Source of the DNA: Clavaria fumosa
Taxonomy: Eukaryota > Basidiomycota > Agaricomycetes > Agaricales > Clavariaceae
Direction of reading: 5' to 3'
Assembly: GCA_951802425.1 (NCBI GenBank)
Contig: OX637797.1
Span: 2,914,001 to 2,978,000, forward strand
Length of the DNA: 64,000 nt
Shown: one piece after another, positions 26,723 to 29,436 of the stretch
How the letters are laid out: every line of letters starts with the position of its first letter
Position numbering within the stretch: the stretch's first letter is position 1
The notes under the pieces: generated by a model
The model's database searches: none
The model's input: only the letters and a program-made list of their open reading frames with translations
Told to the model about the DNA's origin: nothing
Program-made: the position numbers and the translations under genes

Positions 26723-26959
26723 CCCAGAGCTAGTGTTGCCACGGCTCGGCTTTTTTCGGCTCGGCTCGGCTAAACCGAGCGAGCCGTTGGACAATGCACA
26801 ATGGGAGGAGAGATTTTGATACATCTGATCATTCACTCCTTCTGTGAGAGCCCAAAGCCGCTTATTCTGTGGGACTACCTGTTGATTTGAAGCCACAATA
26901 CTCAATGCAAATTCCCAAAAAAGAAATCGGCTCGCGCCGTTGGCAACACTACCCAGAGC
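26723..26959. mobile_element. non-autonomous hAT-type MITE with target-site duplication
   Basis: The 221-bp core (26731-26951) begins TAGTGTTGCCACGGC and ends with the inverted GCCGTTGGCAACACTA. The first 11 bp of the ends are perfect inverted repeats (TAGTGTTGCCA). The core is flanked on both sides by the identical octamer CCCAGAGC (26723-26730 and 26952-26959). An 8-bp duplication plus termini of the form (C/T)AGTGTTGCC is the hallmark of hAT insertions. A subterminal hairpin of GGCTCGG units lies at 26757-26786. No transposase frame is present, so it would have been moved by an element elsewhere. It sits about 120 bp upstream of the FunK1 kinase start. Confidence 0.8.
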
Positions 26960-27080: not shown

Positions 27081-29436
27081 ATGTCCCCGAAAGGCCCTTT
27101 GACCTCCTCATCTGCTTCCAGTTCTTGTGATACTACCCCGCCACCATCTGCCATTCCTTCAGCTGCTCTCCAAGATACTCCGATTAGCAAGAGGGCATCT
27201 AGGACGGACCCCTACACGTCACTTCATCATGAAAGGGATTTCCGGATGCGACAACTGGGCGAAGAGATGGAAGGGAAATTCGTTGGTCCCATGCCTGTTA
27301 TCAAATTCCTAAACAAATTCCTACCCTCTGGCAATTTCCCAACCATGCCCTGGAAGGAGAAGCATCAAGCAGCTTTTAAACGCGTGGCAAAGCAGGGGTC
27401 CGAAAAAGCGATGTATAAACCATTGGTTCATTTCATTTCATTTCAACAATACCTTTGCTATTTTAACTAACGGCTTTCGTTGTTAGATAAAAGCATTAAA
27501 AGCATTCTGTCCCAACCTCGAACTCGTCGACACACATAACCACGTCGACGAATCTAGCATCCTGAATCAAAACCTGCTTAAACCTGACATCACCGCCTAC
27601 ATCACTAAAAGCGGTAGGGATCAAGTGACGGATTTCTCTTTGATGGAGATTCACACAGAGGTCAAATTCGACGAAAGAGACGATCCTTTTTGCGACGACT
27701 CGCCCGAGTCAATAGAACACGATACTGAGGCGAGCAAAGACACCAAAGGCCAAATCACGTCTTACGCCGTCGCTCAGCTTGCGACTCAGTTCCGCTCACA
27801 CATCTTTTCCGTCCTGATCTGTGGCAAATATGCGAGACTTCTACGCTGGGATCGATCAGGAGCCGTAGTCTCCAAAGCGTTCGACTATACGGGAAGGCAT
27901 TTGGCGCAATTTTACTGGCGGTACAATCATTCAGATCCCAGTGTCCGAGGAGTGGATTGTTCCGTATCTAAGCCTTCGGCAAAGGAGGCTATTTTGGCTA
28001 GGAAACTGCTCAAGCTTGAAGAATGTGCCCGCCTTGTAAAGTTTGAAGTTTATGACGAAATCGACGACACTGTTTCTTATTATATTGGAAGCATGCCAAC
28101 ATTCGATAGCGACGCCTCCCCGACCGGAAGTGCCACTCGAACATTCGTCGTCGTCGACCCGGACACGGAACGCGTCGTATTTTTGAAGGATACATGGAGA
28201 ATAGATCTTCCTGATATGATGAAGGAAGGCACGATTTACCGCACTCTTCACAAAGCTAATGTGTCGAATATTCCCACATTCGTACGAGGGGATGATGTTC
28301 CCCACCAACGAACCCGCTCGCAAGATTTTGTTTCTGCCTCGTGGGCTCGACTGCTCGCTAAGCCACTGCGACCCCATCAACACTATCGAATGGTACTTGG
28401 AGAAGTCGGCCGTGACCTGACGTCGTTTGATTCAACTTGGGAATTGGTCAATGCCATGAAAGATGCGCTGCAAGGTGCGTTCGCTTTAATATTATACCAA
28501 TTTTGCTGATATCCCGCTATCTCGTAGCTCATAAGGAAGCATTTGAAAAAGCGAAAATTCTGCATCGTGACGTCAGTGTCGGCAATATATTGATCACCAA
28601 CGATGGACGTGGATTGTTGATAGACTGGGACTTGTCTAAACATACGGAGGACCTCGCGAAAGGTGCCCGACAAGAACGCTCGGTAAATTCACTTTTCCGT
28701 TCGCATACTTTTGGACTCTGAGGAGTTGCCTTGTCTACTCCAGGGGACTTGGCAGTTTATGGCCGCTAGGTTGCTCTTGAGTTCAACACCAGTAGTGCAC
28801 ACTCTCGCGGACGATCTGGAGTCATTCCTTCACGTGCTCAGCTGGGTCGCGTTACGGTTCACACCTCATGACTTGAGTTCTAGGGCCTTAACCGATCTTC
28901 TGGGTATCATGTTTGACGATTCTTATGAGGACGATGACGGTTTCATCCGAGGAGGGCTTTCCAAGCAGTACTACCTGGTTGGAGGTCAGGTTCCGAGAAC
29001 CGGATTCCGCCAGCAGATACTCAGGAACCTGCTGGAAGGTCTTACCGAAACCTGTGCCGTTCGCTACGAGGAACGTCCTTCTGATGGCGGGCTTGCTGCA
29101 TCTCACAAGATGCAGCCCAAGCGTGATGATGAGCTTGCTATGTTTCATTTTCTGCTGGCGGCGCAGTATGAACGCAAATTAGCGGCACTGGAGAGTTCTG
29201 ACTGGATGTTGGAGACCTTCGCGGAAGCTTTGGCGAACCGTGAGGCATGGCCACAAGATGACAAGTCCATCCCGAATCCATTGGCTCACAAGACTCCTTC
29301 GGGCCGAAAGAGAAAATCGGAGACTGATGACTATTTGCCCAAACAGAGGCAACGGTTTACGCCATCGATATCTGAGCACCTTAGTGAGGGAGGTGGCGAT
29401 GAGGAAACCAGCGGCGAGGAACGCACTGTTGATTAA
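27081..29436 (+). CDS. fungal-specific FunK1-type protein kinase
   Basis: Exons 27081-27425, 27487-28474, 28528-28682 and 28744-29436 sum to 2181 nt (726 residues). The family is expanded in multicellular basidiomycetes and its substrates are unknown. The region ahead of the kinase core carries FSLMEIHTEVKF and YAVAQLATQFRSHIFSVLIC, typical of FunK1. The catalytic loop reads LHRDVSVGNILI and the DFG-like motif is DWDLS. SGTWQFMAARLL follows as the activation segment end, with LADDLESFLHVLSWVALRF after it. The C-terminus has basic and acidic low-complexity stretches. All key catalytic residues are visible, so the gene looks intact. Confidence 0.85.

What the first reader, a model, noticed from the sequence alone, without database searches (positions are those of the whole stretch)
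26723..26959. 221-bp hAT-type MITE with a perfect 8-bp target-site duplication
The octamer CCCAGAGC flanks both sides of a segment whose termini are inverted copies of TAGTGTTGCCA. Known hAT elements make 8-bp duplications and have ends of this type. There is no coding capacity, and the duplication is unmutated, which suggests a fairly recent insertion. A subterminal GGCTCGG hairpin could be a transposase-binding region.
Basis: partly seen in the sequence, partly recalled or inferred. Interest (0 to 1): 0.75.

Follow-up and report, generated by a model that had tools for sequence, protein, structure and literature searches.

The report
A recent hAT MITE family
A 221-base piece of non-coding parasitic DNA has fairly recently copied itself to about forty places in this fungal genome, most likely using the enzyme of larger relatives that share its end sequences; it is a well-supported but ordinary kind of mobile element, sitting here just upstream of a kinase gene.

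Summary
The interpretation also holds. The genome (48.8 Mb; probably a mushroom-forming basidiomycete, species not identified) holds 40 scored copies; 30 of 40 have perfect 8-bp target-site duplications (TSDs), at 28 distinct sites. For four of those sites another copy of the host repeat shows the uninterrupted target with a single octamer. The end sequence TAGTGTTGCCA occurs 408 times genome-wide against 7 for the reversed control. It bounds several other short element families with 8-bp TSDs, and one 4,786-bp element with a hAT dimerisation domain, both ends and a 7-of-8 TSD. KDZ transposons, the main rival with 8-bp TSDs, showed no exact copy near their domain.

The family is young: outside CpG sites 34 copies differ from their majority by 0.5% on average; the window copy keeps all 13 CpGs. 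It lies 121 bp upstream of the inferred start codon of a fungal-kinase gene.

Not tested: transposition, which transposase moves it, and empty alleles in other strains (no relatives held). Active autonomous and non-autonomous hAT families sharing ends are published for Marasmius oreades, so this is a new family of a known kind.

The parts
26723..26730 (.). left target-site duplication, CCCAGAGC
26731..26951 (+). 221-bp non-autonomous hAT element (MITE); orientation arbitrary
   Evidence: 40 copies in the genome; family boundaries fixed by the TSDs and inverted ends
26731..26741 (+). left terminal inverted repeat TAGTGTTGCCA (the similarity to other elements of the group reaches about 20 bp at this end)
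26742..26786 (+). CpG-rich subterminal block with five CGGCT and three GGCTCGG words and a small hairpin; possible transposase-binding region (inference only)
26941..26951 (-). right terminal inverted repeat, exact reverse complement of the left one
26952..26959 (.). right target-site duplication, CCCAGAGC; continues into the leader shared by the kinase paralogues
27081..29436 (+). downstream neighbour (not part of the element): gene with matches to Pfam Pkinase_fungal (FunK1 type) in two open frames; start codon at 27081 and end inferred

Best explanation
The segment is one copy of a young family of about forty non-autonomous (MITE) elements of the hAT superfamily. Shown: identical 11-bp inverted ends, 8-bp TSDs at 28 distinct sites, empty paralogous sites with one octamer, and the same ends on larger elements that carry hAT transposase domains. 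Inferred: a hAT transposase made elsewhere in the genome binds the shared ends, cuts the element out and inserts it at a new site with 8-bp staggered cuts; gap repair makes the duplication. The window copy was inserted this way into CCCAGAGC, just upstream of a fungal-kinase gene. The element itself has no known function.
For: 40 scored copies, mostly 94-100% identical; the second search with a diverged copy gave 40 rows, all on loci already in the first list. TSDs: 30 of 40 perfect, 3 with 1-2 mismatches, 2 of 7 bp, 5 none; of the 5, three are truncated or disrupted (L094, L095, L099) and two are the inverted pair of L093. Empty sites: for L010, L020 and L090 another copy of the host repeat runs through the target with a single octamer, and for the site shared by L015/L016/L083 locus L080 does so; that is 4 of the 28 distinct sites queried. 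The 11-bp end: 408 against 7 in the control. Other families with the same end: of 20 spans examined on C1-C3 and C11, 16 have a perfect 8-bp TSD, 1 has one mismatch, 3 have none. hAT link: 7 of 30 fetched hAT-domain loci have the exact 11-mer 309-338 bp downstream of the domain; on C1-C3, 4 of 29 hAT matches have it in the right orientation within 600 bp, against 0.07 by random placement. The element at C7:2471832-2476617 (4,786 bp) has the 11-mer at both ends, flanks ACCCACAG/ACCCGCAG, and a hAT dimerisation domain (E 8.4e-11) between them. A hAT end of L034 is 84% identical to the MITE over 44 bp.
Against: No transposition was observed. No single transposase is tied to this family: only the terminal 20-45 bp are similar, and the MITE interior matched no larger element among the loci held. 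The transposase reading of the 4,786-bp element is in pieces (introns or damage not resolved), and its BED-finger match is below the curated cut-off (19.4 against 20.6 bits). Most hAT-domain matches (25 of 29 on C1-C3) do not have this 11-mer at that place, so several hAT groups with other ends are present. The window's own site has no full empty counterpart; homology of the kinase paralogues stops at the octamer.
Confidence: 0.95

Rival explanations
1. A MITE of another superfamily that also makes 8-bp duplications, above all KDZ (Kyakuja-Dileera-Zisupton), which is abundant in this genome. (That KDZ makes 8-bp duplications is recalled.)
For: 185 KDZ matches in the genome. Allowing one mismatch, 4 of 10 fetched KDZ loci contain an 11-mer like the end, which is more than chance would give; in two (L057, L060) it lies inside the matched KDZ domain.
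Against: Exact 11-mer in 0 of 10 fetched KDZ loci and 0 of 48 listed KDZ matches on C1-C3 within 600 bp downstream, against 4 of 29 for hAT.
Confidence: 0.03
2. Coincidence: a chance octamer repeat around a chance inverted repeat.
For: In the window alone, 13 of 100 shuffles give two one-mismatch matches to the 11-mer.
Against: 40 copies with boundaries at the same bases and 30 perfect, mostly different octamers.
Confidence: 0.001
3. A real repeat that spreads by segmental duplication or as a passenger of other elements, not by its own cut-and-paste.
For: Some copies are duplicates of the same insertion: L015/L016/L083 and L098/L099 share octamer and flanks, and L093 holds an inverted pair.
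Against: 28 distinct octamers and unrelated flanks among the 30 perfect copies, with precise empty sites.
Confidence: 0.01

Closest known systems
MarorhAT-10 and its non-autonomous relatives MarorhAT-4, -11, -12 in Marasmius oreades (PMC9674265; abstract and sections 7, 8, 9, 16, 19 read)
   Same: An autonomous hAT element and several short families share their terminal inverted repeats in a mushroom genome; the short ones there are 597-631 bp, close to the 601-606-bp family found here.
   Different: There, movement was observed in monokaryons. Here activity is only inferred. The end sequences of the Maror families were not in the text I saw, so identity of the ends is untested. The 221-bp family is shorter.
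hAT MITE families of plants and animals, such as mar in Drosophila (PMC3517528) and BniHAT in Brassica nigra (PMC7385995); both seen only in search listings
   Same: Short, non-coding, terminal inverted repeats, members of the hAT superfamily.
   Different: Other hosts and unrelated sequence, as far as the listings tell.
hAT7 elements of rust fungi (PMC12730594; passages read)
   Same: Fungal hAT elements; that paper gives 8 bp as the usual hAT duplication.
   Different: hAT7 makes 7-bp duplications. Here only 2 of 40 copies show 7 bp.

Membership tests
hAT superfamily | 8-bp target-site duplication | tested here: met
   30 of 40 copies perfect; empty sites with one octamer at 4 sites
hAT superfamily | short terminal inverted repeats (10-25 bp, PMC3942097 passages) of the type YARNG at the tip (type recalled) | tested here: met
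   11-bp perfect inverted repeat TAGTGTTGCCA
hAT superfamily | ends shared with an element coding a hAT transposase | tested here: met
   4,786-bp element with both ends, 7-of-8 TSD and PF05699 domain; 7 of 30 hAT loci have the exact 11-mer 309-338 bp downstream of the domain; Hermes transposase is the solved relative of one such domain, E 0.0016 over 57 residues
hAT superfamily | mobilised by a hAT transposase | not testable with these tools
   needs an excision or integration assay
MITE | short, non-coding, multi-copy, homogeneous length, inverted ends | tested here: met
   40 scored copies, 221 bp in the 34 main copies, no Rfam match
hAT subgroup Ac or Buster | duplication consensus nTnnnnAn (Ac) or nnnTAnnn (Buster); both recalled | tested here: inconclusive
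   43 octamers, strand-symmetrised: position 2 T 29 of 86, position 4 T 21 of 86, neither raised over background; position 3 is C or T in 65 of 86 and position 1 G in 35 of 86. Symmetrised halves are not independent, so the p-values there are only a guide. No transposase tree was made.
KDZ | ends shared with elements coding a KDZ transposase | tested here: not met
   0 of 10 exact (4 of 10 with one mismatch); 0 of 48 within 600 bp downstream

The most novel reading that the evidence does not exclude
One hAT transposase lineage in this genome drives a whole guild of short families (199-209, 221, 247-257, 601-606 bp and 1.8-2.4 kb) that share little but about 11-20 bp at the tips, with a target preference (roughly G-N-Y-C at the half site) that fits neither recalled hAT subgroup, and repeated use of the same octamer in both orientations. 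That would make the genome a natural assay of the minimal hAT end signal.
Probability: 0.15. Interest if true: 0.45.

Novelty: new member of a known kind. Interest (0 to 1): 0.22.

Why it matters
It is a clean, young MITE family with many dated copies, a set of sister families with the same ends and candidate parent elements in one genome. That gives material for asking which bases of a hAT end are enough for mobilisation, and how fast methylated-type CpG decay overtakes new copies in a fungus. The copy in the window sits in the presumed promoter or leader of a fungal-kinase gene, where an effect on expression could be measured. None of this changes what is known about hAT elements.

Tried and rejected
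Left nowhere or rejected: (1) A parent element for the MITE interior: no long match among the loci held; the L034 hAT group has the most similar end, but its copy is interrupted by retrotransposon sequence and its nearest relative (L123) shows one end only in 1.2 kb and the same flanking octamer, so it looks like a duplicate of the same insertion. (2) The 5' end of the hAT group of L024/L025/L044/L046 was not reached after three rounds of fetching upstream (analysed); in L025 a repeat with 651-bp spacing breaks the element. (3) Elements L063 and L064 (2,397 and 1,785 bp, perfect TSDs) were tried as autonomous partners: four frames gave no Pfam family. (4) KDZ as the source was rejected. (5) Rfam gave nothing. 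(6) An empty counterpart of the window's own site: only half a site. (7) Joined-flank matches also cross the junction for L019, L087, L088 and L092, but in palindromic, short or gapped alignments that I did not resolve and do not count. (8) The hexokinase neighbour was used to place the organism: the best hits are unnamed; named ones are Termitomyces, Amanita and Fomitopsis at 33-46% identity, so the species stays unknown. (9) Literature: by words; by the end sequence (59 papers hold one of four strings, 30 listed, none of those 30 titles is about transposons, none opened). I found no report of this 221-bp family in these searches; Repbase and other repeat libraries were not available.

Full report
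What is there. Bases 26723-26959 read octamer CCCAGAGC, a 221-bp segment, octamer CCCAGAGC; the segment begins with TAGTGTTGCCA and ends with its exact reverse complement. In the window alone the end 11-mer is not decisive: 13 of 100 shuffles give two one-mismatch matches.

Copies. The window lies in a 48,762,940-bp assembly of 17 contigs. The search with the 237-bp stretch gave 41 rows on 40 loci (58 first-look candidates, 40 scored, so a lower bound). A second search with a diverged copy (59 candidates, 40 scored) gave 40 rows, all on the same loci. Of the 40 copies, 30 have identical 8-bp flanks exactly at the element ends, 2 differ by one base, 1 by two, 2 share 7 bp and 5 have none. In both one-mismatch cases (L081, L097) the difference is a C/T or A/G change at a CpG. 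Three copies with the octamer GGATGACT or its complement are one site, so the 30 perfect copies stand for 28 sites. The five without TSD are two truncated copies, one with a disrupted end (a duplicate of L098) and the two members of an inverted pair.

Empty sites. No related genome is held, so I asked whether the flanks of other copies lie in repeats of which an unfilled copy is among the loci held (46 joined sites, 30 of this family and 16 of sister families). For L010 the joined flanks run through L020 (98.7% over 236 bp) and L042 (97.0%); for L020 through L065 (89.3% over 299 bp); for L090 through L065 (96.7% over 300 bp). Each shows one octamer where the filled site has two. For the site of L015, L016 and L083, locus L080 shows one GGATGACT. 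These are four of 28 sites. Sister families gave further matches across the junction (L068, L072, L075, L080). For the window copy, four other loci share the right flank from the octamer onwards, with 7 of 8 octamer letters in three of them, but their left flanks are unrelated, so this is only half an empty site.

The ends mark a group. TAGTGTTGCCA occurs 408 times in the genome against 7 for the pattern read backwards (100 places listed). Of 20 spans between facing ends that I examined, 16 have perfect 8-bp TSDs, 1 has one mismatch and 3 have none. They include families of 199-209, 247-257 and 601-606 bp and two related elements of 1,785 and 2,397 bp; the longest spans look like short elements with other elements inserted.

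The hAT link. The genome has 79 matches to the hAT dimerisation domain PF05699 and 185 to KDZ. Of 30 fetched hAT loci, 7 have the exact 11-mer 309-338 bp downstream of the domain, facing inward; of 10 fetched KDZ loci none has an exact copy, though 4 have one with a single mismatch, 2 of these inside the KDZ domain match. On C1-C3, where the list of ends is complete up to C3:3,769,448, 4 of 29 hAT matches and 0 of 48 listed KDZ matches have the end within 600 bp downstream; random placement gives 0.07 and 0.11. Within 5 kb in any direction the figures are 9 of 29 and 5 of 48. The element at C7:2471832-2476617 is 4,786 bp long with TAGTGTTGCCA at both ends and flanks ACCCACAG and ACCCGCAG, again one CpG-type change apart. 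Between them lie a hAT dimerisation domain (E 8.4e-11) and a BED-finger match just below its cut-off. A sister domain from L025 matches Hermes transposase (E 0.0016). The MITE's left end is most like the hAT end of L034 (84% over 44 bp) and those of L063/L064 (20-36 bp).

Age and decay. In 34 main copies I counted 136 substitutions against the majority: 103 in 26 CpG columns (91 transitions) and 33 in the other 196 columns (6 truncated or diverged copies left out). Mean divergence outside CpG is 0.5%. CpG loss per copy runs from 0 to 10 of 13 sites (mean 2.7, variance 7.2); the window copy has lost none and differs at one other site. This fits a recent burst with CpG decay of the kind expected from cytosine methylation, which is inferred. 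The published work on M. oreades reports high CpG methylation of repeats (PMC9674265, section 9).

Setting. The element lies 121 bp before the inferred ATG (27081) of a gene with two frames matching Pfam Pkinase_fungal. Six further copies of this gene occur in the genome; four begin within six bases of the right octamer and two begin at 27093. An effect of the MITE on the gene is possible and untested.

Mechanism. Shown: element, ends, TSDs, empty sites, shared ends with hAT-coding elements. Inferred: cutting and pasting in trans by a hAT transposase. The GGCTCGG block and hairpin (fold z-score -4.61, which includes the pairing of the inverted ends) may bind transposase, but sister families with the same tips lack this motif, so this is a guess.

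What is known. Papers passages give hAT elements as 2.5-5 kb with 10-25-bp inverted repeats and 8-bp TSDs (PMC3942097). An autonomous hAT with several non-autonomous families sharing its ends, moving in monokaryons, is published for M. oreades (PMC9674265). This family is therefore a new member of a known kind. Searches by words and by the end sequence found no report of it; repeat libraries were not searchable.

Noticed in passing
window 26951-26956 and paralogues L119, L120, L121, L122: Five copies of the fungal-kinase gene share sequence that starts within a few bases of the MITE's right octamer, with four different left flanks (L119 and L120 share theirs) and different right limits. The kinase unit seems to have a sharp left border, exactly where the MITE inserted. 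Unexplained.
   Followed up: partly
L015 (C1:392810), L016 (C8:3374279), L083 (C4:3219270): The same host repeat carries the 221-bp element at the same octamer in all three, but in L015 the element is flipped relative to the flanks. Either an inversion in place or two insertions into one octamer.
   Followed up: partly
L063 (C3:1178296-1180692) and L064 (C3:2494734-2496518): Elements of 2,397 and 1,785 bp with the same ends and perfect 8-bp duplications carry frames up to 375 aa with no Pfam match; possibly a captured gene piece.
   Followed up: partly
C1:5087949-5088141 and many places near contig ends: A repeat of about 190 bp recurs at 651-bp steps in arrays near contig ends (for example C1:38985-46338), probably a subterminal satellite; one copy breaks a hAT element.
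   Followed up: no
L006, L018: Two copies have 7-bp rather than 8-bp duplications.
   Followed up: no
L093 (C9:2756060-2758290): Two copies in inverted orientation, each flanked on both sides by the same 30-bp sequence instead of an 8-bp duplication.
   Followed up: no
L043, L061, L066: Nested insertions: a 257-bp sister element with its own 8-bp duplication close upstream of a hAT domain, and long retrotransposon-like stretches between the ends of short elements.
   Followed up: partly
genome-wide: KDZ transposons are very abundant (185 matches, capped list), many near-identical, which suggests recent KDZ activity too.
   Followed up: no
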